Shown here: piece by piece, positions 372 to 47,177 of the stretch
How the letters are laid out: every line of letters begins with the position of its first letter
How positions within the stretch are numbered: the first letter of the stretch is position 1
Assembly: GCF_025215495.1 (NCBI RefSeq)
Contig: NZ_CP104302.1
Coordinates: 1,364,001-1,428,000 of the forward strand
DNA from: Mycolicibacterium brumae
GTDB lineage: Bacteria; Actinomycetota; Actinomycetes; Mycobacteriales; Mycobacteriaceae
Reading direction: 5' to 3'
Length of the DNA: 64,000 nucleotides
The notes under the pieces: model-generated
Told to the model about the DNA's origin: nothing
The model's input: only the letters and a program-made list of their open reading frames with translations
Database searches by the model: none
Position numbers and translations under genes: made by a program

Positions 372-3152
372 CTACGCGCTTCCGGTGTCCCGGTACGACA
401 CACCGGCCGCCTGCACGTCGTCGATCTGGTACTCCTTGGCCGCCTCGGCCGCGACCGACATGTCGATCGCGCCGTCGCGGGCCAGCGCCACCAGCACCCC
501 GACCACCACCGACTCGGCGTCGGTGTTGAAGTAGCGCCGCGCCGCCGGGCGGGTGTCGGAGAACCCGAAACCGTCGGTGCCCAGGGTCAGATAGGTGCCC
601 GGCACCCACGGCCGGATCTGCTCGGGCACCGCCCGCATCCAGTCCGAGACCGCCACCACCGGCCCGGCCGTTTCGGACAGCGCCCGGGTGACGTGGGGGA
701 TCGGGGCGCCGTCGCCGGCGCGATCGGGATGGCGCAGCAGTTCCTTCTCCACCTCGACGCCGTCGCGGTTGAGCTCGCCCCAGCTGGTCACCGACCACAC
801 GTCGGCCGCCACATCCCACTTCTCGGCCAGCATGCCCTGGGCGCGCAGCGCTTCGGGCATGCCGACCCCGGAGGCCAGGATCTGCGCGGTGTGGGCGCGC
901 GACTCGGGCGCCTGCCGGTAGCGGTACATGCCGCGCAGCAGGGCGTCGACGTCGAGCCCCTCCGGTTCCGCGGGCTGCGGGTAGGGCTCGTTGTAGATGG
1001 TCATGTAGAAGTAGATCTTCTCCGGGTTCGGGCCGTACATCCGGGCCAGGCCGCTTTCGATGATGTGCGCGATCTCGAAGGCGAACGCCGGGTCGTAGCT
1101 GACCACCGCCGGGTTGGTCGCCGCCAGCAGCAGCGAGTGACCGTCGGCGTGCTGCAGGCCCTCGCCGGTCAGCGTGGTGCGCCCGGCGGTCGCGCCGAGC
1201 ACGAACCCGTGCGCCATCTGGTCGGCGGCGGCCCAGAAATTGTCGCCGGTGCGCTGGAACCCGAACATCGAGTAGAAGATGTAGATCGGGATCATCGGCT
1301 CGTTGTGGGTGGCATACGAGGTGCCGACGGCGATGAACTCGCCGGTGGAGCCGGCCTCGTTGATGCCCTCGTGCAGGATCTGGCCGGTCTCGCTTTCCTT
1401 GTAGGCCAGCATCAGTTCGGCGTCCACCGACCGGTACAGCTGGCCGTTGCGGTTGTAGATCTTCAGCGTCGGGAACCAGGAGTCCATCCCGAAGGTGCGG
1501 GCCTCGTCGGGAATGATCGGCACGATCCGGGAGCCGATGTTCTTGTCCCGCAGCAGTTCCTTGAACACCCGAACGGTGGCCATGGTGGTGGCCACCTCCT
1601 GGTTGCCGGACCCCTTCTTCACCGACTTGTAGGCGTCGGGCCCGGGCAGCGTCAGCGCCTTGGCCTTGGTGCGCCGCTCCGGCAGGAACCCGCCGAGGGC
1701 TTCGCGGCGGTCGAGCATGTAGCGGATCTCCGGGGCCTCGGGCCCGGGGTGGTAGTACGGCGGCAGGTACGGGTCGGCCTCCAGCTGGGCGTCGGTGATC
1801 GGCACCCGCGCGGTGTCCCGGAACGCCTTGAGGTCGTCGAGCACCAGCTTCTTCATCTGGTGGGTCGCGTTGCGGCCCTCGAAATGCTTGCCGAGGGTGT
1901 AGCCCTTGATGGTCTTGGCCAGGATCACCGTCGGCTGACCGTGGTGGTCCAGCGCGGCCCGGTAGGCGGCGTAGATCTTGCGGTAGTCGTGACCGCCGCG
2001 CTTGAGCCGCCACAGGTCGTCGTCGGAAAGATTTGCGGCCAGTTGCTTGGTGCGCGGGTCCCGGTTGAACCAGTTCTCCCGCAGGAACGCGCCGTCATTG
2101 GCGCGGATGGTCTGATAGTCGCCGTCGGGGGTGTTGTTCATCAGGTTGACCAGAGCGCCGTCCTTGTCGGCGTGCAGCAGCGCGTCCCATTCGCGGCCCC
2201 ACACCACCTTGATGACGTTCCAGCCCGCGCCGCGGAAGAACGACTCGAGCTCCTGGATGATCTTGCCGTTGCCGCGGACCGGGCCGTCGAGGCGCTGCAG
2301 GTTGCAGTTGATGACGAAGGTCAGGTTGTCCAGGCCGTCGTTGGCGGCGACCTGCAGCAGGCCGCGGCTTTCCGGCTCATCCATCTCGCCGTCGCCCAGG
2401 AACGCCCAGACGTGCTGGTCGGAGGTGTCCTTGATGCCGCGGTCGTGCAGGTAATGGTTGAACCGGGCCTGGTAGATGGCGTTCATCGGGCCCAGGCCCA
2501 TCGACACCGTCGGGAACTCCCAGAAGTCCGGCATCAGTCGCGGGTGCGGGTAGGACGGCAGACCGCCGCCCGGGTGGGAGTGCTCCTGCCGGAACCCGTC
2601 GAGGCGGTCCGCCGACAGCCGGCCCTCGAGGAAGGCGCGGGCGTAGATGCCGGGGGAGGCGTGGCCCTGGACGAAGATCTGGTCGCCGCCGCCGGGGTGG
2701 CCCTTGCCGCGGAAGAAGTGGTTGAAGCCGACCTCATACAGCGAGGCCGACGACGCGTAGGTGGAGATGTGGCCGCCGACGCCGACGCCCGGGCGCTGGG
2801 CGCGATGCACCATGATCGCGGCGTTCCACCGGATCCACTGCCGGTAGCGGCGTTCGAGTTCCTCGTCGCCGGGGAACCACGGCTCCAGCTCGGTGGGGAT
2901 GGTGTTGACGTAGTCGGTGGAGGTGAGCGCGGGGATGGCCACCCGCTGCTCGCCGGCGCGCTCCAGCAGCCGCAGCATCAGGTACCGCGCGCGGGCCGGG
3001 CCGGAGCGCTTGAGCATGTCGTCGAAGGACTCCAGCCACTCGCCGGTCTCCTCGGTGTCGATGTCGGGCAGGTACGACGCGACGCCTTCGCGGATCACCC
3101 GCACCCGGTCATGCTCGGCGGACGACGGCTGCTTGGCGAACTCGGGGGACAA
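372..3152 (-). CDS. aceE: Pyruvate dehydrogenase E1 component AceE (homodimeric type)
   Basis: The product (926 aa) decarboxylates pyruvate with thiamine diphosphate and passes the acetyl group to the lipoylated E2 subunit DlaT, whose gene lies at the other end of the window. The ThDP-binding [10 protein letters not shown] region, the [27 protein letters not shown] block and the C-terminal [15 protein letters not shown] segment are intact and very close to M. tuberculosis AceE. The open frame extends far upstream, but the conserved protein starts at about [23 protein letters not shown] chose a TTG at 3150-3152 because an AAGGAG ribosome site lies 6 nt before it. The divergent neighbour is a lipoprotein gene, with a 169-bp shared promoter region. 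Confidence 0.95.
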
Positions 3153-3224
3153 CTTCAGCTCCTTGCTCGGCGGGGGACGCCGACGGGGTTTTCTGGCGCG
3201 ACGCCCTCTTATCAAACCCCAACT

Positions 3225-3236
3225 CACGCTTGCGTG
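3225..3236. promoter_or_regulatory. Perfect CACGC-TT-GCGTG palindrome in the aceE/lipoprotein divergent promoter region
   Basis: A perfect 5-bp inverted repeat with a 2-bp centre lies about 73 bp upstream of the aceE start and 86 bp upstream of the divergent lipoprotein gene. It is embedded in a longer imperfect palindrome read on the minus strand as CTTACACGCAAGCGTGAG. A TGATAAG hexamer that could serve as a -10 box for aceE follows about 13 nt further on. I cannot name the regulator. It could be a TetR-type operator or a chance palindrome in GC-rich DNA. Confidence 0.35.
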
Positions 3237-3321
3237 TAAGGCGGATGTGCGGTCCCGACGCCACGATCGGAAACCCGGTTGCGAGCAACCGGAAGCGCTA
3301 CCAACCGGTAACCTCTCGGCT

Positions 3322-3885
3322 GTGATTGACGGCGGCCGAATCCGGACCGGTGGACGGCTGATCGGTGGGGCCGCCGCGGTGCTGATCGGCGTCATCGGAT
3401 GCAGCGCCATCACCGACGGCGAGGGCGTCGCGAACCAGGAAGAAGCCCCGGCGTTTCGCACGTCGGTGTCGGTGTCGGCGTCGGCCGCGGAGGTGACGTC
3501 GAGCGCGAAGGCGGCCGAACGCGCCGCCGCGGAAACCACCAAGGCGATCTACGGGGTGTGCGAGACCATGGCCACCAGCAGCGCCGACGCGGTCAGCAAA
3601 GTCAACACCTACGTCTCGGCGGTCAACGGCAACGGTGATCCGGCCGTCAGCAAGCAGCCGGCCGTCGACGCGCTGAACAACAGCGCCGACAATGTGGAGA
3701 CCGGCGTCACCGCCGCGGTCACCGGCGATCTGGGGGACGCGCTGACCGCCTGGGTCGCGGCGGCCCGGGCCACCGCGGACAGCATCGCCAACGACGCCTC
3801 GCCGACGGATTTCAACGCGTCGGTGATGCAGGTGAACTCCGCCCGGAAGACGGCGCTGGAACTGTGCGATTCGACGTATCGGTGA
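3322..3885 (+). CDS. Putative lipoprotein/secreted protein, Rv2240c-like
   Basis: This encodes 187 aa from a GTG start. The N-terminus has two arginines, a hydrophobic stretch ([16 protein letters not shown], about residues 13-28) and a VIGC lipobox, so it is probably exported and lipid-anchored at Cys27. The mature part is Ala/Thr/Ser-rich and helical, with a Cys in YGVCETM and another near the C-terminus (LELCDSTYR) that could pair. Position opposite aceE and next to the DUF3052 gene matches M. tuberculosis Rv2240c. No enzymatic motif is visible and the function is unknown. Confidence 0.7.
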
Positions 3886-3926
3886 TGTGGATGTCGCGGC
3901 GGCGGCTGCTGTGCGACGATGAATCC

Positions 3927-3941
3927 CGCGGCAAAGCCGCG
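3927..3941 (+). terminator. Small GC hairpin between the lipoprotein gene and the DUF3052 gene
   Basis: CGCGGC-AAA-GCCGCG forms a perfect 6-bp stem with a 3-nt loop. It lies 41 nt after the lipoprotein stop and just before the GAAGGAGG ribosome site of the next gene. There is no following T-run, so it may be an attenuator, a processing hairpin or a weak mycobacterial-type terminator. Confidence 0.3.
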
Positions 3942-3963
3942 TTGACGTGAAGGAGGACCCACG

Positions 3964-4392
3964 GTGGTGGCGGCCGACGGCGCCCCTGACTACGCCCAGC
4001 GACTGGGCATTCAAAAGGATCAGGTCGTCCAGGAACTGGGGTGGGACTCGGACACCGACGACGACATCCGGCTCGATATCGAAGAGGCCAGCGGGTCCGA
4101 ACTGCTCGATGAGGACACCGACGAGGTCGTCGATGTGGTGCTGCTGTGGTGGCGCGACGACGACGGGGACCTGGTGGACGCGTTGATGGACGCCATCACT
4201 CCGCTCGCCGAAGACGGCGTGATCTGGGTGCTGACCCCCAAGACCGGCCAGGACGGCCACGTGCATCCCGCCGAGATCGCCGAGTCCGCGCCGACCGCCG
4301 GGCTGATGCAGACGTCCTCGGCCAACCTGGGCGCCTGGATCGGCAGTCGGCTGGTGCAGCGCAAGTCCAAGGCAGCCGGGAGACACAGCTGA
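3964..4392 (+). CDS. DUF3052 family protein (Rv2239c-like)
   Basis: This is a 142-aa acidic protein with the DUF3052 signature AQRLGIQKDQVVQELGWDSDTDDDIR and a predicted alpha/beta core (VVDVVLLWWRDDDGDLVDALMDAITPLAEDGVIWVLTPK). It is conserved in actinobacteria; no activity is established that I know of. The frame opens with tandem GTG codons at 3964 and 3967 preceded by a strong GAAGGAGG site, so the start could be either one. Its TGA overlaps the ahpE ATG (TGATG), indicating translational coupling with the peroxiredoxin, the same arrangement as Rv2239c-ahpE in M. tuberculosis. Confidence 0.85.
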   Translation: MVAADGAPDYAQRLGIQKDQVVQELGWDSDTDDDIRLDIEEASGSELLDEDTDEVVDVVLLWWRDDDGDLVDALMDAITPLAEDGVIWVLTPKTGQDGHVHPAEIAESAPTAGLMQTSSANLGAWIGSRLVQRKSKAAGRHS

Positions 4393-37073: not shown

Positions 37074-38473
37074 GCAGCGGGTCGGCGGCGACCTCGATGT
37101 CGCCGGCCAGCGCCGCCGCCTGCAACTCTTCGAAGTCGGCGACGGTCTTATCCGCGTAGCGGTAGCACCACTGCACCACCGCCTCGGTGGCCTTGCCGCC
37201 CTCGCCGAAATAGCCGCGGAACACCTCGGCGTTGGCGCTCTGGGCGTGTCCCCGTGCCAGCACCACAGCGCAGCCCTGGGCGTACTCGGACAGGCTGGTC
37301 TCATCGAGGACGGAAAGGTCGACGCTGCCCTTCATGTCGTGGAACTGCCGCACGTAGTACTCGCCGCCGTCGATCCGCACGGTCCCGAGGAACACATCCG
37401 ACATGGCCTGCAGGATTCGCTGCCCGTCGACCACCCGTCGGCCCTGACCGTGGGCGCTGATCGCCTCATCCAGCGCCGGGGGCTGCGCGCGGCCACCGTA
37501 TTGCTCCAGCACCGAGCGTTGGGCCTCCTTGACCTGCATGATCAGCGGGGTCCCGTGCCCGTCGATCCCGGTCACCAGGAAGCACCGGGTGCCGACGCTG
37601 CCGACGCCCACCACCCGCATCGCGATGTCGGTGGCCTTGAAGTGTGCCAGCAGCAGACGGACGTCGACGCCGACCGAATCCATGTACTCGGCGATCGCGT
37701 CGAGCAGCGCCCGCTCGTCCGACAGCGGCACGTGCCGCGTCAGCGCGGTCTCCCGGAACCCGCGGGATGCCGTCGGAATCGGGTTCGGTGAGGCGGTCGA
37801 ACGCCCGCGCGGAGGTCCGTTTGCGGGCCTGCGCGATACCCCTGCGGACCACCTTGTCCAGGCTCTTCGAGACGTTGACGCTGGTCCGCTCCGGTTCGAC
37901 GCGCAGATAGAAGCGGTCCAGCACGCTCATCCGCAGCAGTTCGTTCGACGCGCGGCGGTAGGCCTCGGCGGTTCCGTCGGCGATGTCGCGGACCGTGGCC
38001 TCGGAGAACCCGCGGTTCCGCGCGGTCAGGATGGCGCTGGTGACCAGGCGTTTGAGGTCCCATTCGGCCGGCGCGGCCGCCGCCTCGTCGAAGTCGTTCA
38101 GGTCGAACACGATGGCGCGGTCCGGCGCGGCGAACACCCCGAAGTTGGACAGGTGGGCGTCGCCGCAGCACATCACCTCGATGCCGGTGGTCGGGCTGGC
38201 GCCCAGGTCGGCCGCCATCACCGCCGCGGCCCCCCGGTAGAAATGCAGCGGGTCGACCAGCATCCGGGCGAACCGCAATCCGACCAGATCCGGCACCCGG
38301 ACCCCGTTCTGCTCGACGAGAATCGACGTAGCGGAGCGGCCCGCGGGTGTCAGCTCCGCCAACGCCTTCCGGGGTGTCACCTGTCGTTGCGCGCGGCCCT
38401 GGCGGCGATCGGTTTCCGGGTCCTCCGGGTGGATCTCGCGGTCACGCAGATTCAGGTCGCGCATATTGGGCAT
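37066..38473 (-). pseudogene. DUF2252 family protein gene with a one-base frameshift
   Basis: Two frames share one protein. The N-terminal part (from ATG 38473, MPNMRDLNLRDREIH... to EPDSDGIPR) continues in another frame as REx-ALTRH-VPLSDERALLDAIAEYMDSVG... down to 37066. Removing one base from the CCC run at 37759-37761 (plus strand) joins them into an uninterrupted protein of about 468 residues, the usual length for this kinase-like family. Motifs such as CCGDAHLSNFGVFAAPDRAIVFDLNDFDEA (the aminoglycoside-kinase-like DxD region) are present. Either a sequencing error or a recent inactivation. Confidence 0.88.
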
Positions 38474-39813: not shown

Positions 39814-40992
39814 GTGACCACCCCGCGAAACGCGACCCCGCCGACCGCGGGTGAGGTCTACGCGCTGATCAGGGCTCGGGGCCGGCTCACGCGCAGCGAG
39901 GTGGGCCGGCTGACCGGACTGTCCCGCACCGCGGTGGCCGCCCGGGTGTCCGCGCTCATCGCACTCGGGCTGGTCGACGAGAGCGCCCCGGCGCCCTCGA
40001 CCGGCGGCCGACCGGCGACCTATCTGAGTTTCGCCGCCGACGCCGGGGTGGTGCTGGCCGCGGCCGTCGGCCGCAGCCGCACCCAGCTGGCCGTCTACGA
40101 CCTGGCCGGGCGGACGCTGGCCGCCAGCACGCTCGATCAAGAACCCGGTGTGGGCCCCGACGATCTGATGCCCGACGTGGTCAAGGGCCTCGACGCGCTG
40201 CTGGCCGAGTGCGGCCGCGCGGACGCCCGGATCTTCGGCGTCGGGCTGAGCCTGCCGGGAACCGTCGACCAAGGTCGCGGCGCGGTCTCGGACTCACCGG
40301 TCATGAGCGGCTGGGACGGTGTTCCGCTGCGTCCCTATTTTGCCGAATTGACCGATGCGCCAATCATTCTCGACAACGACGTGAACGTGATCGCCGGAGC
40401 TGAACGCGCGCCCGGCGGATCCGATCTCGATGACCTGCTGGTGCTGAAGGCCTCGACCGGTCTGGGGCTGGGCATCATCGCCGGCGGGGTGCTGCAGCGC
40501 GGCGCAACGGCCGCCGCGGGCGAGTTCGGACACAACAAGGTCGCCGCCGCCGCGGGCATCCCGTGCCGCTGCGGCGATGTGGGCTGCGTCGAGGCGATCG
40601 CCGGTGGCTGGGCCGTGGTGCGGGACCTGCGGCGCGCCGGCCGCCCGGTCGCGCACGTCCGCGACGTGGTCGAGCTGGCCAACGCCGGTGACGCCGAGGC
40701 CCGTCGGATGATCCGGGACAGTGGCCGCCATGTCGGCGCGGCGCTCGCATCCGCGGTCAATCTGCTCAACCCCGCCGCGCTGGTCATCTCCGGTGATCTG
40801 GCCGGCGCCTACGACGTCTATGTGGCGGGCCTGCGGGAAACGCTCTACCGGGACGCCACCGCGCTGGCCACCCGCGAGTTGCAGGTGGTCCCCGGCGCGT
40901 TCGGGGATCAGGCGGGCCTGATCGGCAGCGCCGCGGTGGCGCTGGACCGGGTGCTGAGCCCCGCGGCCATCGACGCCGCGGCGCTGAGTTAG
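39814..40992 (+). CDS. ROK-family transcriptional regulator
   Basis: The 392-aa protein has an N-terminal winged helix ([33 protein letters not shown]) followed by a sugar-kinase-like ROK domain. The domain has [11 protein letters not shown], the GEFGHNKV segment and the zinc-binding [18 protein letters not shown] regulators sense sugars or sugar phosphates, so it probably represses the divergent MFS transporter. The GTG at 39814 is preceded by a weak site. It overlaps the panB 3' end by 4 bp. Confidence 0.92.
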
Positions 40993-41840
40993 AAGCTGTG
41001 TTCCTCGGCGGGGAACACCCCGCCGGCCACCTCGTTGGCGTAATCGCTTGCCGCACGGCGCAGCTCGGCGCCCACATCGCCGAACCGCTTGACGAACTTC
41101 GCGGTCCGCCCGGAGGTCATCCCGGCCATGTCCTGCCAGACCAGCACCTGGGCGTCACAGTTCTTGCCGGCGCCGATGCCGATCGTCGGGATGGTCAATT
41201 TGCCGGTGATCTGGGTGGCCAGGTCGCCGGGCACCATCTCCAGCACCACGGCGATCGCGCCGGCCTCGGCGACCGCGATGGCGTCGTGAATGACCTGCTC
41301 GCCGCTGTCCCCGCGGCCCTGCACCCGGAAACCGCCGAGGCTGTTGACGCTCTGCGGGGTGAAGCCGAGGTGCCCGACCACCGGGATGCCGGCCTGGGTG
41401 AGCGTGGCGATCTGGCCGGCGACTCGTTCGCCGCCCTCGATCTTCACCGCGTGCGCGCCGGCTTCCTTCATGAACCGGGTCGCGGTGGCCAGGGCCTGCT
41501 CCGGGCCGGCCTCGTAGCTGCCGAACGGCAGGTCGGCGACCACCAGGGCGTGCGGGGCGCCGCGCACCACGCCGCGGGCCAGCGGAATCAACTCGTCGAT
41601 GGTGATCGGCACGGTGGTGTCGTAGCCGTACACCACGTTCGCCGCGGAGTCGCCGACCAGCAGCACCGGGATCTCGGCGTCGTCGAAGGCGCGGGCGGTG
41701 GAGTAGTCGTAGGCGGTCAGCATGGCCCACTTGTGGCCTTCGGCCTTCCATTGGCCCAGGTGGTGGGTGCGGACCTTGATCCGGCGCTTGGTCTCGGTGG
41801 CGGGGGCGGAGCCGTAAACGGGCATCTCGGTGACAGACAT
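40989..41840 (-). CDS. panB: 3-methyl-2-oxobutanoate hydroxymethyltransferase PanB
   Basis: The enzyme (283 aa) makes ketopantoate from alpha-ketoisovalerate and methylene-tetrahydrofolate, the first step of pantothenate synthesis. Visible family motifs are [72 protein letters not shown] and [20 protein letters not shown]. Length and position match Rv2225. ATG 41840. Confidence 0.96.
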
Positions 41841-42079
41841 CGTTGTCCTCAATGTGATCGTCGGGTCGATCCTCGTGGCCCATCCGGGTCCCCGGGTTCG
41901 TCTGACCACCTCAGTTTGCCATCCGGTTGCGCCGAGGTGAACGCGCTCGCGGAGTGGATTTGCTCACAATGACCGAAAGGGTTGTGACCAGCCCGGGGGA
42001 AGCGGCAAACCGCTGATCGGGCCGCCACGCGGCCCCGGGGTGTCCGACGCCGGGAGGTCGGCGTGAAAGACTCGGCGCT

Positions 42080-44197
42080 GTGGATGGCGACGTGACCTAC
42101 AACGCCGCGCAGCTGCTGGCGGCCCGCGGGCCATTGCCGCCGGAGCTGGCGCTGCCGATCATCGGGGGCGCCGCCGCGGCGCTGGACAACGGCTACCGCG
42201 AACGCCTGACCCCCTACCGGGACCTCACCGCGGCCAACATCCTGCTGGACTTCGCCGCCGACGGGTCACTGCAGTCGGTGAAGCTGGCCGAGGTGGAGTC
42301 GGGATCCTCGGGCAATATCTATCCGGAGGCCACCCAGGGTCGGGAACTGGACAATCGCGCCGACGTGTACGCGCTGGGCGCCACCGCGTTCGAGCTGCTC
42401 ACCGGGGGGCCGCCGTACATCGCGCCGACCCTGCCGGAACTGATGGTGGCGCACGCCTATGCGCCGATCCCGTCGATCAGCGCGGCGAACCCGCAGCTGC
42501 CGCCGACCCTGGACCCGGTGTTCGCCCGCGCGCTGGCGAAGGCTCCCGAGGGGCGCTACCCGATCTGCGAAGAGTTCTTCACCGCGCTGCAGGCCGCCGG
42601 TCTGGCGCCCGGTGTCGCGGTGGCGCCGGCGTTCGCCGCGCCCGGAACGCCCGGGACCGCCGCGAAACCGCGTCGGCACATGGCGGTGCGGCTGGCCGCG
42701 ATCGGGGTTTCCGTCGCGGTGCTGGCGACGGCCGGGGTGTGGCTGGTCAAGCGGATGGACGCCCGAGACACCCCGGGGGAGTTGCCGACGGCGTCGGTGC
42801 AGTGGAAGTCGTGCCCGTTCACCGATCAGGCGCCGGACTCGGTGCGCTCCGGTGAGTGCGGGGTGATAAAGGTCCCCGTCGACTACGAAGACCCCAGCGG
42901 TCAGCAGGCCAGCATCGCGCTGATCCGCTTCCCTGCAACCGGGGCCCGGGTCGGGTCGCTGATCATCAACCCGGGCGGGCCGGGGGAGTCTGGCATGGAC
43001 GCCGCGATCAGCATGCTCGACAAGGTGCCGGGCCCGGTCCGGGAACGCTATGACCTGGTCGGATTCGATCCCCGCGGGGTCGGGCGGTCGCAGCCGGCGC
43101 TGTGGTGCAACTCCGACGCCGACAATGACCGGCTGCGCGCCGACAACATCGTGGAGTACACCCCCGAGGGTGTCGAGCACATGGAGTCCGAGACCAAGGC
43201 CTTCGTGCAGCGCTGCGTCGACCGGATGGGCAAGGATTTCCTGGCCAACGTCGGCACCAAGAACGTCGCCCGCGACCTGGACATGCTGCGCGCCGCCCTT
43301 GGCGACGACAAACTGACCTATCTGGGCTACTCGTATGGCACCCGGATCGGCGCCGCGTACGCCGAGGCCTTCCCAGAGCACGTCGGGAAGATGATCCTGG
43401 ACGGCGCGATCGACCCGAACGCCGATCCGGTCCAGGCCGAGATCGACCAGGACACCGCGTTCCAGAAGGCATTCGACGATTTCGCCGCCGATTGCGCCAA
43501 GGACGCCGACTGCCCGCTGGGCGACGATCCGACCCAGGCCGTCGAGGTGTACCGCTCGCTGACCTGGCCGTTGGTGCAGCAGCCGGCGCAGACCAAGGAC
43601 CCGCGCGGGCTGTCCTACACCGATTCGCTGGTCGGCACCATCCTGGCGATGTACTCGCCGAACTTCTGGTCGCACCTGAAGACCGGGCTGGCCGAGCTGC
43701 GCAACGGCACCGGCGACACCCTGCTGACGATGGCCGACATCTATATGCGGCGTGACCGCAACGGCCGCTACGACAACTCGACGGACGCCCGGGTGGCGAT
43801 CAACTGCGTCGACAAACCGGCAATCACCGACCGGGAGACGGTCATCGAAACCGATCGGCGCAGCCGCGAGGCCGCCCCGTTCATGAGCTACGGCGAGTTC
43901 ACCGGCGACGCCCCGCTGAGCACCTGCGCGTTCTGGCCGGTGCCCCCGACCAGCGAGCCGGGCGAGCTGTCGGTCCCGGGTCTGCCGCCGACGCTGGTGG
44001 TGTCGGTGACCGGCGATCCGGCCACCCCGTACCAGGCCGGGGTCGAGCTGGCCCGTCAGCTCGGTGGCGCCCTGCTGACCTACGACGGCACCCAGCACAC
44101 CGTGGTGTTCCAGGGTGAGCAGTGCGTCGACGACTACGCCACCGCATACCTGGTGGACGGGAGCCTGCCCCCGGACGGCGCGCGCTGTCCCAACTGA
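42080..44197 (+). CDS. Degenerate kinase C-lobe fused through a membrane helix to Hip1/CaeA-type serine hydrolase
   Basis: This is a 705-aa protein from a GTG start. Residues about 1-172 match only the C-lobe of a Ser/Thr kinase: GPLPPELALPIIGGAAAALD, then YRDLTAANILLD (46-57) where HRDxKxxN is expected, KLAEVESG where DFG is expected, and DNRADVYALGATAFELLTGGPPY. There is no N-lobe, no HRD histidine, no catalytic Lys and no DFG. After an Ala/Pro linker, one TM helix (about 203-223) leads to a complete TAP-like alpha/beta hydrolase (240-705). Its nucleophile Ser418 is in GYSYG, with the acid in VTGDPATPYQAG and His in DGTQHTVVF. In M. tuberculosis the orthologue Hip1 (Rv2224c) has a short lipoprotein-type anchor instead. 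Confidence 0.88.
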   Translation: MDGDVTYNAAQLLAARGPLPPELALPIIGGAAAALDNGYRERLTPYRDLTAANILLDFAADGSLQSVKLAEVESGSSGNIYPEATQGRELDNRADVYALGATAFELLTGGPPYIAPTLPELMVAHAYAPIPSISAANPQLPPTLDPVFARALAKAPEGRYPICEEFFTALQAAGLAPGVAVAPAFAAPGTPGTAAKPRRHMAVRLAAIGVSVAVLATAGVWLVKRMDARDTPGELPTASVQWKSCPFTDQAPDSVRSGECGVIKVPVDYEDPSGQQASIALIRFPATGARVGSLIINPGGPGESGMDAAISMLDKVPGPVRERYDLVGFDPRGVGRSQPALWCNSDADNDRLRADNIVEYTPEGVEHMESETKAFVQRCVDRMGKDFLANVGTKNVARDLDMLRAALGDDKLTYLGYSYGTRIGAAYAEAFPEHVGKMILDGAIDPNADPVQAEIDQDTAFQKAFDDFAADCAKDADCPLGDDPTQAVEVYRSLTWPLVQQPAQTKDPRGLSYTDSLVGTILAMYSPNFWSHLKTGLAELRNGTGDTLLTMADIYMRRDRNGRYDNSTDARVAINCVDKPAITDRETVIETDRRSREAAPFMSYGEFTGDAPLSTCAFWPVPPTSEPGELSVPGLPPTLVVSVTGDPATPYQAGVELARQLGGALLTYDGTQHTVVFQGEQCVDDYATAYLVDGSLPPDGARCPN

Positions 44198-44263: not shown

Positions 44264-45775
44264 ATGTTGGGCATGCAGCGCATCTTCGGCTCTGCGCTGC
44301 TGACCGCGGCGCTGGTCTGCGCCACCCCACTTCCCGTCGCGCCTGCCGCGCCGAATGTGGCTGCCGCGCAGGCGAACTGGGGGAGCTGCCTGCCGATTGT
44401 CGACGGCGCCGAGCAGGCGCCCGGCGCGCAGTGCGCGATGCTCACGGTGCCGATCGACTACGACGCCCCCGGCGCCGGAGTGGCCCGGATCGCCGTCGTG
44501 CGCGTCCCGGCGACCGGGCAGCGGCTCGGCGCGCTGCTGGTCAACCCGGGCGGTCCGGGCGCCTCGGCGGTGGACACCGTGGTCGCGATGGGCTCGGCGC
44601 TGGCCGGCAGCCCGATCAACACCCACTTCGACCTGGTGGGCTTCGACCCGCGCGGCGTCGGCTACTCCCAGCCGCTGCTGCGCTGCCTGACCGACGCCGA
44701 GTTCGACGCCTGGCGGCGCGAGCCGATGGCCGACTACAGCCCGGCCGGCGTGGCCCGGATCGAAGCGCTCAACAAGCAGTACGCCGATCGGTGCGCCGCC
44801 AAGACCGGAACCGCGGTGCTGGCGCACGTCGGGACCCGCGAGGCGGCCCGCGATATGGACGAGGTCCGCAAAATGCTCGGCGACGAGCAGATCAACTACC
44901 TCGGCTTCAGCTACGGCACCCGGATCGGCACGGAGTACGTCAACCGCTTCGGGCCCAGGGTGCGCGCCATGGTGCTCGACGGGGCGATCGACCCCAGCGC
45001 CGGCCCGCTGGACGCGATCCTGCACCAGATGGCCGGATTCCAGTCGGCCTTCGACGACTTCGCCGCCGACTGCGCCCGTAGCGCCGACTGCCCGCTGGGG
45101 ACCGACCCGAGCCAGGCCAACGCCCGGTACCGGCAGCTGGTCGACCCGCTGGTCACTCGGCCCGCGCGCACCGCCGACCCGCGCGGGCTGTCCTACGCCG
45201 ACGCGATCACCGGCACCTTCAACGCCCTCTACAGCCCGCAGCTGTGGCGCTACCTGACCCGCGGATTGACCGGTCTGGCCCGCGGAACCGATCCCGGGGA
45301 CCTGCTGACGCTGGCCGACGAGTACCAGGGCCGGGACCGCAGCGGGCACTACACCAACGCCCAGGACGCCTTCAACGCCATCCGCTGCGTCGACGCCCCC
45401 TGGCCGACCGATCCGGCGGTCTGGGCCGGCCTGGACGCCGAGGTTCGCGAGGCGGCGCCGTTCGCCGCCTACGGCTCGCACACCGGCCGCGCCCCGCGTG
45501 ACATCTGCTCGTTCTGGCCGGTTCCGCCGACTTCGTCGCCCGCGCCGGCCACCGCCGCCGAGCCCGGCCAGGTGGTGGTGGTCTCCACCACCGGAGACCC
45601 GGCCACCCCGTATCAGGCCGGGGTGTCGCTGGCGCGCCAGCTCGGCGGGTCGCTGGTCACCTTCCAGGGCACCCAGCACACCGCGGTGTTCAACGGGAAC
45701 GAATGCCTGGACACCACGGTGCTGGCGTTCCTTATCGATGGCAAGACTCCGCCGTCGGGCCTGCGCTGCGGCTGA
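44264..45775 (+). CDS. Secreted TAP-like alpha/beta hydrolase (Rv2223c-like)
   Basis: The 503-aa protein has a signal peptide (ALLTAALVCATPLPVAPAAPNVAAAQA), then the Hip1-type hydrolase fold: VNPGGPGASAVD oxyanion region, FDPRGVGYSQP, nucleophile elbow GFSYGTRIG, acid in TTGDPATPYQAG and histidine in GTQHTAVF. It is a tandem paralogue of the preceding gene with 66 bp between them, as in M. tuberculosis Rv2224c-Rv2223c. It has no kinase-like part. Start ATG 44264 or 44273. Confidence 0.9.
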   Translation: MLGMQRIFGSALLTAALVCATPLPVAPAAPNVAAAQANWGSCLPIVDGAEQAPGAQCAMLTVPIDYDAPGAGVARIAVVRVPATGQRLGALLVNPGGPGASAVDTVVAMGSALAGSPINTHFDLVGFDPRGVGYSQPLLRCLTDAEFDAWRREPMADYSPAGVARIEALNKQYADRCAAKTGTAVLAHVGTREAARDMDEVRKMLGDEQINYLGFSYGTRIGTEYVNRFGPRVRAMVLDGAIDPSAGPLDAILHQMAGFQSAFDDFAADCARSADCPLGTDPSQANARYRQLVDPLVTRPARTADPRGLSYADAITGTFNALYSPQLWRYLTRGLTGLARGTDPGDLLTLADEYQGRDRSGHYTNAQDAFNAIRCVDAPWPTDPAVWAGLDAEVREAAPFAAYGSHTGRAPRDICSFWPVPPTSSPAPATAAEPGQVVVVSTTGDPATPYQAGVSLARQLGGSLVTFQGTQHTAVFNGNECLDTTVLAFLIDGKTPPSGLRCG

Positions 45776-45836: not shown

Positions 45837-47177
45837 ATGGATCGCCAGATGGAATTCGTGCTGCGGACCCTGGAAGAACGCGACATCCGATTCGTCCGGC
45901 TCTGGTTCACCGACGTGCTCGGATTCCTCAAATCGGTGGCGATCGCCCCGGCCGAACTCGAAGGCGCATTCGAGGAGGGCATCGGATTCGACGGCTCCTC
46001 CATCGAGGGGTTCGCCCGGGTGTCGGAATCCGACTGCGTCGCCCGGCCCGATCCGTCGACCTTCCAGATCCTGCCCTGGCGGGCCAACAACGGGCACTTC
46101 CACACCGCCCGGATGTTCTGCGACATCACCATGCCCGACGGCTCCCCGTCCTGGGCCGACTCCCGGCACGTGCTGCGCCGCCAGCTCGCCAAGGCCAGCG
46201 ACCTCGGGTTCTCCTGCTACGTGCACCCGGAGATCGAGTTCTTCCTGCTGGAGCCCGGCCCGTACGACGGCAGCGTCCCGGTGCCGTCGGACAACGGCGG
46301 CTACTTCGACCAGGCCGTGCACGACAGCGCGCCGAACTTCCGCCGCAACGCCATCGAGGCGCTGGAGAAGATGGGCATCTCGGTGGAGTTCAGCCACCAC
46401 GAGGGCGCGCCCGGGCAGCAGGAGATCGACCTGCGGTACGCCGACGCGCTGTCCATGGCCGACAACGTGATGACCTTCCGGCACCTGGTCAAGGAGGTCG
46501 CGCTGTCGGAGGGGGTGCGGGCGTCGTTCATGCCCAAGCCGTTCACCGAGTACTCCGGCTCGGGCATGCACACCCATATGAGCCTGTTCGAGGGCGAGAC
46601 CAACGCCTTCCACAGCGACGACGACCCGCTGCAGCTCTCCTCGGTCGGCCGGTCGTTCATCGCAGGCATCCTGGAGCATGCGGTGGAGATCAGCGCCGTC
46701 ACCAACCAGTGGGTGAACTCCTACAAGCGGCTGGTGCACGGCGGGGAGGCCCCCACCGCCGCCTGCTGGGGCGCCGCCAACCGCTCGGCGTTGGTGCGGG
46801 TGCCGATGTACACGCCGAACAAGTCGGCGTCGCGCCGCATCGAGGTGCGCAGCCCCGACTCGGCGTGCAACCCGTACCTGACCTACGCGGTGCTGCTGGC
46901 CGCCGGCCTGCGCGGGGTGGAGCAGGGCTACGAACTCGCCCCCGAGGCCGAGGACAACGTCTGGGACCTCACCCCGGAGGAGCGTCGCGCGATGGGCTAC
47001 CGGGAGCTGCCCAGCAGCCTCGGGCACGCGCTGGCCGAAATGGAGCGCAGCGAGCTGGTCGCCGAGGCGCTCGGCGAGCACGTGTTCGACTTCTTCCTGC
47101 GCAATAAGCGTTCCGAGTGGGAGAACTACCGCAGCAACGTCACGCCCTACGAGCTGAAGCAGTACCTCTCGCTGTAG
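45837..47177 (+). CDS. glnA2: Glutamine synthetase-type enzyme GlnA2
   Basis: This 446-aa GS has the same length as Rv2222c. Motifs include GIGFDGSSIEGF, HPEIEFFLLE (metal Glu), FMPKPFTEYSGSGMHTHMSL (ammonia/glutamate site) and NKSASRRIEVRSPDSACNPYL. The loop equivalent to the adenylylation Tyr region reads NVWDLTPEERRAM, without the Tyr-Asp/Glu-Leu pattern, so it is probably not a GlnE target. In mycobacteria GlnA2 is one of the GS paralogues tied to glutamine or polyamine metabolism. glnE follows after 24 bp. Confidence 0.95.
   Translation: MDRQMEFVLRTLEERDIRFVRLWFTDVLGFLKSVAIAPAELEGAFEEGIGFDGSSIEGFARVSESDCVARPDPSTFQILPWRANNGHFHTARMFCDITMPDGSPSWADSRHVLRRQLAKASDLGFSCYVHPEIEFFLLEPGPYDGSVPVPSDNGGYFDQAVHDSAPNFRRNAIEALEKMGISVEFSHHEGAPGQQEIDLRYADALSMADNVMTFRHLVKEVALSEGVRASFMPKPFTEYSGSGMHTHMSLFEGETNAFHSDDDPLQLSSVGRSFIAGILEHAVEISAVTNQWVNSYKRLVHGGEAPTAACWGAANRSALVRVPMYTPNKSASRRIEVRSPDSACNPYLTYAVLLAAGLRGVEQGYELAPEAEDNVWDLTPEERRAMGYRELPSSLGHALAEMERSELVAEALGEHVFDFFLRNKRSEWENYRSNVTPYELKQYLSL

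What the first reader, a model, noticed from the sequence alone, without database searches (positions are those of the whole stretch)
42080..44197. Degenerate kinase C-lobe fused to the envelope protease Hip1/CaeA
The first 170 residues align only with the C-lobe of a bacterial Ser/Thr kinase, without N-lobe, HRD histidine, catalytic lysine or DFG. A transmembrane helix and an intact Hip1-type hydrolase follow. In M. tuberculosis Hip1 has only a lipoprotein anchor. I infer an inside-to-outside arrangement: a cytoplasmic pseudokinase module tethered to an extracytoplasmic protease, possibly a docking site for real kinases.
Basis: partly seen in the sequence, partly recalled or inferred. Interest (0 to 1): 0.85.

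Follow-up and report, generated by a model that had tools for sequence, protein, structure and literature searches.

The report
Envelope protease fused to dead half-kinase
In a genome that is almost certainly that of the harmless bacterium Mycobacterium brumae, the gene for the envelope protease Hip1 begins with the rear half of a protein kinase that has lost its catalytic parts; the half-kinase is predicted to hang on the inner side of the membrane and is more likely a leftover of a gene-fusion accident than a working signalling device.

The parts
40989..41840 (-). panB (ketopantoate hydroxymethyltransferase), divergent neighbour
   Evidence: Pfam PF02548 E 9.4e-107
41952..41969 (+). Conserved block GAGTGGATTTGCTCACAA; in four relatives it lies upstream of the wax-ester-synthase-type gene
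   Evidence: Alignment of five panB upstream regions; promoter role inferred; consensus scan found no promoter
42052..42058 (+). Shine-Dalgarno-like GGGAGGT
   Evidence: Duplex energy -11.0, background 1% value -9.5
42063..42095 (+). Mini-ORF of 10 codons whose TGA overlaps GTG 42092; its codons resemble the kinase hinge by eye only (no BLAST match)
   Evidence: Sequence; energy
42080..42604 (+). Degenerate kinase C-lobe, residues 1-175; P0001 starts at GTG 42092 (residue 5)
42605..42670 (+). Ala/Pro-rich linker, residues 176-197, with the presumed 3' junction at its end
   Evidence: No significant match of its own; low pLDDT
42671..42757 (+). Former Hip1 signal segment, now presumed membrane anchor without lipobox, residues 198-226
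   Evidence: P0122 z 9.1, aligned with Hip1 N-termini; hydropathy
42794..44197 (+). Hip1/CaeA hydrolase, residues 239-705, Ser418, Asp646, His673
44264..45775 (+). Tandem Hip1 paralogue (503 aa)
   Evidence: Pfam PF00561 and PF08386; same order in relatives
45840..47177 (+). Glutamine synthetase (glnA2 by position)
   Evidence: Pfam PF00120; same order in relatives

Best explanation
The gene is a chimaera in which the 3' part of a Ser/Thr kinase gene, without its N-lobe, DFG and most of its activation loop, is joined in frame to a Hip1 whose lipoprotein signal has likely become a membrane anchor, and the kinase part is likely a passenger rather than a docking site. Inferred course: (1) in the ancestor of this species and its nearest relatives Hip1 lost its lipobox cysteine, so that the signal segment stayed as an uncleaved anchor; (2) in this lineage a rearrangement removed the wax-ester-synthase-type gene between panB and hip1 together with the start of hip1, and a kinase fragment, whose nearest relatives are kinases of the same genome, came to stand there; (3) the message would be read from the ribosome-binding site at 42052, through a short mini-ORF, into the chimaera; (4) the protein would sit with a folded, catalytically dead C-lobe in the cytoplasm and the hydrolase outside. 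The C-lobe can then drift as long as the frame stays open and export is not blocked.
For: C-lobe identity and lost catalytic parts. Intact, normally evolving Hip1: triad, end branch 0.19 against 0.08-0.17 in its three sisters. Anchor older than the fusion: P0121/G418 and P0122 lack the lipobox, G410 keeps it, and the trio with the window groups at 83/76 inside 100/100; the segment matches Hip1 N-termini. Wax-ester-synthase-type gene (Pfam PF03007) between panB and hip1 in G418, G410, G359 and G285, missing here, nearest relative in the genome 35%. Fusion seen in this species only, among 396 genus genomes with the N-terminal query and 120 listed of 366 protein hits. Fast branch: 0.83 against 0.30 in its sister; omega 0.24 against 0.057. 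Ribosome-binding site upstream of the kinase part; GC3 0.82-0.95 across it, 0.62-0.78 upstream.
Against: Pure neutrality on the fragment's branch is rejected weakly (2dlnL 5.72 and 6.48 on two topologies). 25 of 28 invariant kinase positions after residue 82 are kept, and identity there (54-64%) equals that among working kinases (54-69% range: 55-69%). Freeing the sister branch L002 gives omega 0.23, so the rise is not cleanly the fragment's own. The order of events rests on moderate support (83/76). The donor gene is not identified (87/76 for L002). No expression data were found.
Confidence: 0.6

Rival explanations
1. The C-lobe is a retained pseudokinase module: it gives Hip1 a cytoplasmic docking or dimerisation surface for working kinases or their substrates, so that the envelope protease is placed or tuned from inside.
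For: Losses are concentrated in the catalytic half (20 of 36 invariant positions) while the helical half keeps 25 of 28 (Fisher P 0.0002; 0.014 without the gapped columns). The C-lobe is predicted to fold. Neutrality over the whole fragment is weakly rejected.
Against: In the helical half neutrality is not rejected (omega 0.42, 2dlnL 0.54). One species only in what was searched. Relatives do with a short cytoplasmic start (P0122) or a Pro-rich leader (P0121). No partner known.
Confidence: 0.17
2. Hip1 is translated from Met201 (ATG 42680) or another start next to the anchor, and the kinase stretch is an untranslated or separately ended relic upstream.
For: In relatives Hip1 starts close to the anchor (P0122). 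The best ribosome-binding site leads into a mini-ORF in another frame that stops after ten codons. The neighbouring hip1 paralogue has a weak site too (-1.7), so a weak site alone excludes no start. Absence of stops is uninformative (none in 22-63% of neutral simulations).
Against: ATG 42680 has duplex energy -1.1. GC3 pattern of a coding frame runs through the fragment, though this could be inherited. Indels seen against the kinases keep the frame.
Confidence: 0.21
3. The join is an assembly artefact.
For: A fusion found in a single species invites the suspicion.
Against: The protein cluster P0001 is held from 4 contigs, the longest 58,278 bases, hence from at least one record other than the 3,988,920-base chromosome (inference). 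PMC9850167 gives 136-fold PacBio depth (passages).
Confidence: 0.02

Closest known systems
Hip1/CaeA (Rv2224c) of M. tuberculosis, PDB 5ugq, 5uno, 7sfm
   Same: Hydrolase domain along its whole length (E 2.5e-217) and the catalytic triad; gene order hip1, paralogue, glutamine synthetase as in the relatives examined
Hip1 of the probable M. fallax genome (G418/P0121) and P0122
   Same: Nearest Hip1 relatives (77% for G418), no lipobox, hydrophobic anchor
   Different: No kinase part; G418 keeps the wax-ester-synthase-type gene
Kinases L002, L003 and L004 of the same genome; PknF, PknE and PknB
   Same: C-lobe sequence and predicted fold
   Different: They have an N-lobe, HRD, DFG and activation loop
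ActPs3 pseudokinases such as MviN (PMC12599244, passages)
   Same: Degraded catalytic motifs, deletion in the activation loop, membrane protein of the cell envelope
   Different: The paper describes constraints in their N-lobe, which this fragment lacks; here the fragment groups with ordinary kinases of its own genome

Membership tests
Hip1/CaeA hydrolase (Abhydrolase_1 plus TAP-like) | Hydrolase and TAP-like domains over their full length | tested here: met
   PF00561 1.4e-33 and PF08386 8.8e-25; solved Hip1 2.5e-217
Hip1/CaeA hydrolase (Abhydrolase_1 plus TAP-like) | Catalytic Ser, Asp, His | tested here: met
   Ser418, Asp646, His673 by motif and alignment; triad of Hip1 from PMC4022732 (passages)
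Hip1/CaeA hydrolase (Abhydrolase_1 plus TAP-like) | Usual, not defining: lipobox at the signal | tested here: not met
   Absent here; present by pattern in 79 of 80 loci and 112 of 120 proteins
Hip1/CaeA hydrolase (Abhydrolase_1 plus TAP-like) | Protease activity | not testable with these tools
   None
Active bacterial Ser/Thr (Hanks-type) kinase | N-lobe with glycine loop and VAIK lysine | tested here: not met
   Absent from the ORF and not found upstream
Active bacterial Ser/Thr (Hanks-type) kinase | HRD and DFG motifs, activation loop | tested here: not met
   YRD; E in place of the DFG Asp, F and G and most of the loop missing
Active bacterial Ser/Thr (Hanks-type) kinase | C-lobe fold | tested here: met
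ActPs3 pseudokinases | Whole kinase domain, N-lobe included | tested here: not met
   No N-lobe; description of the family from PMC12599244 passages
ActPs3 pseudokinases | Family-specific sequence constraints | not tested
   No ActPs3 sequence was put into the tree

The most novel reading that the evidence does not exclude
A kinase C-lobe freed of its N-lobe has been recruited as the cytoplasmic handle of an envelope protease: its helical half is kept as a docking or dimer surface that lets cytoplasmic kinases place or regulate Hip1 across the membrane, an inside-out device made of half a kinase and a protease.
Probability: 0.15. Interest if true: 0.75.

Novelty: new variant of a known kind. 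Interest (0 to 1): 0.36.

Why it matters
It is an example, within one small clade, of how an envelope enzyme seems to change its anchor from lipid to membrane helix and then gain a cytoplasmic domain by gene loss and fusion. It also offers a natural test of whether a kinase C-lobe can live on without its N-lobe. If the half-kinase were shown to bind something, it would be a new way to couple the cytoplasm with envelope proteolysis; as it stands it warns against reading function into every odd domain fusion.

Tried and rejected
Kinase origin of the hydrophobic segment: BLASTP against kinase L004 extended through it and a shuffle test gave P 0.0015; Hip1 protein P0122 gave P 0.0005 there. On a shorter query P0122 has z 9.1, against 5.5 for the best of 18 mycobacterial kinases and 6.1 for the best of 112 other kinases; but the medians of the three groups are alike (0.96, 1.18, 1.09), so the case rests on the nearest Hip1 relatives and on the alignment from RRH on. 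Kinase origin is less likely, not excluded.

Shared fusion with the fallax-like relative: its Pro-rich leader looked similar to the linker, but P 0.083, so no claim is made.

Absence of stop codons as evidence of translation: simulations from L002 and L004 gave no stop in 22-63% of runs; not informative.

Promoter scan of 41850-42750: none found. Scan of genome contigs with the N-terminal 235 residues: no relative (the tool says that near records may be left out). Literature searches: none of the papers listed describes this fusion in its title or in the part of the abstract shown; PMC9850167 holds Hip1 zero times in its main text. This does not show that it is unpublished; supplements could not be read.

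Lists and samples that were cut: searches show 120 of 366 and 120 of 740 proteins; one search scored 7995 candidates only; searches show part of their rows, and both draw from a larger group. The kinase tree used 18 kinases and the fragment; L144 (same locus as L042) and a second kinase frame in L006 were dropped. The codon models used 8 of these 19 rows. The Hip1 tree used 19 hand-picked rows. In one search two comparison starts (labelled 42692 and 45840) were set at wrong places and are not used. In one search kinase loci on the minus strand were first read on the wrong strand; one search replaces it.

Full report
What the window is. The genome that holds the window (G000) is one contig of 3,988,920 bases. 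That is exactly the length given for M. brumae ATCC 51384, CP104302, in PMC9850167 (passages only).

No N-lobe upstream. A tblastn of 20 kinase frames against window 41600-42800 gave 107 of 262 matches that reach left of 42080; these are low-complexity matches, the best (3e-6) from a Pro-rich tail on the other strand, and none joins an N-lobe at a better than chance E-value.

The hydrolase. Residues 239-705 match Hip1 of M. tuberculosis (E 2.5e-217) with Ser418, Asp646 and His673 in place. In the Hip1 tree the window's end branch is 0.19, near the 0.08-0.17 of its three sisters, so Hip1 itself does not look decayed. That Hip1 of M. tuberculosis is a serine protease with a Ser228, Asp463, His490 triad is from PMC4022732 (passages).

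The anchor looks older than the fusion. By pattern, 79 of 80 Hip1 loci and 112 of 120 proteins carry a lipobox. Of the 8 without a pattern match, P0151 and P0172 carry a lipobox-like cysteine that the pattern missed, P0131 and P0178 have odd starts, and P0001, P0121, P0122 and P0201 have none; among the loci L084 has none, so loss is not unique to this clade. The nearest relatives lack it: P0121, which has the same leader and anchor as G418, and P0122, a 510-residue Hip1 whose anchor shares GVSVAVL with the window. Their next relative G410 keeps it. The tree groups window, P0121 and P0122 with support 83/76, inside a 100/100 clade with G410. The window's segment aligns with Hip1 N-termini such as P0124 from RRH on, and best with P0122 (z 9.1). 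So the segment is most likely Hip1's former signal, and the 3' junction lies near residue 198. A kinase (L004) also gave a notable local score (P 0.0015), which I take as coincidence. Positive residues lie mainly before the segment (KPRRHMAVR), which predicts N-inside; this is inference, not a topology test.

How the locus changed. In G418, G410, G359 and G285 a gene lies between panB and hip1, followed by the hip1 paralogue and glutamine synthetase (cut by the end of the stretch in G359 and G285). In G418 it is a wax ester synthase/diacylglycerol acyltransferase (PF03007 2.9e-76); in the others the start of the gene aligns. In the window the block 41952-41969 upstream of it is conserved, the gene is gone (nearest relative in the genome 35% identical), and the kinase fragment stands there. 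Which gene gave the fragment is open: in a tree of 164 columns it falls beside L002 of the same genome, with support 87/76 and an end branch of 0.83.

Distribution. The N-terminal query against 396 genomes of the genus found 12 genomes with a match at 1e-33 or better, the own one included. Translations of the loci of the other 11 (L039-L049) show kinases with an N-lobe, apart from L047, which is cut at the contig end, and by reading none runs into a hydrolase. Among 120 listed of 366 protein hits, P0001, the window's own protein, is the only one with a hydrolase domain in the Pfam column; with the anchor region as query it is the only one of 120 listed (740 found) longer than 547 residues. In the 198-genome search with the whole protein, of the rows shown only the own one begins before residue 130.

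Selection. In a two-rate codon model (own script, 8 sequences, 164 codons) omega on the fragment's branch is 0.24 against 0.057 elsewhere; against equal rates 2dlnL is 4.82, against neutrality 5.72; on a second topology 5.31 and 6.48. As control, freeing a single other branch gives 0.23 for L002, 0.096 for L042 and 0.02 for L003 and L004, so the rise is not cleanly the fragment's own. By halves omega is 0.21 before residue 82 and 0.42 after it; equal rates are not rejected in either half (2.19, 2.89), neutrality is rejected in the first (4.35) and not in the second (0.54), while protein identity in the second (54-64%) equals that among working kinases (55-69%). Taken together: relaxed, perhaps not fully released. 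The branch also includes time before the fusion, which this test cannot separate.

Translation. GC3 is 0.82-0.95 across the fragment and 0.62-0.78 upstream. The strongest ribosome-binding site among the starts examined is GGGAGGT ahead of GTG 42063, energy -11.0, beyond the 1% background value of -9.5. That start opens ten codons that resemble the kinase hinge by eye and end in a TGA that overlaps GTG 42092 (-5.5), the start that P0001 uses. GTG 42080 has -1.7 and ATG 42680 (Met201) -1.1. For comparison, panB has -5.6 and the hip1 paralogue -1.7, so a weak site alone excludes no start. Translation through the kinase part, by coupling, is thus the likelier reading. It is not shown.

Judgement. 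Shown: the chimaeric ORF, the C-lobe identity, the loss of catalytic parts, a Hip1 with its triad, the missing wax-ester-synthase-type gene, and no second fusion in what was searched. Inferred: topology, translation start, origin of the anchor, order of events, and the passenger role.

Noticed in passing
L140 (G418), reverse strand, about 3950-4240 of the reversed locus: Behind the native hip1 start region the frame breaks off and a new Pro-rich leader (P0121 starts MTQPPDSGG) opens Hip1: a second, different N-terminal remodelling in the sister species.
   Followed up: partly
window 37466-38473, minus strand: ORF matches only positions 1-176 of 392 of DUF2252 (PF10009) and then runs into unrelated sequence: possibly frame-shifted or truncated.
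   Followed up: partly
G000:C1:96707-97213: Another kinase-like stretch of this genome carries an in-frame TGA, a possible second kinase relic.
   Followed up: no
L084, match 2919-4337, and protein P0201: Further Hip1 proteins without a lipobox cysteine, outside the brumae clade (L084 is titled Mycobacterium talmoniae).
   Followed up: no
L058 and L087: Records titled Bifidobacterium breve MAG hold a mycobacterial-type hip1 (71% and 68%), which suggests mislabelled or contaminated bins.
   Followed up: no
P0123: The first 200 residues equal G410 Hip1, then identity falls to 29-43 per 50 residues: it looks like a chimaeric metagenome assembly.
   Followed up: partly
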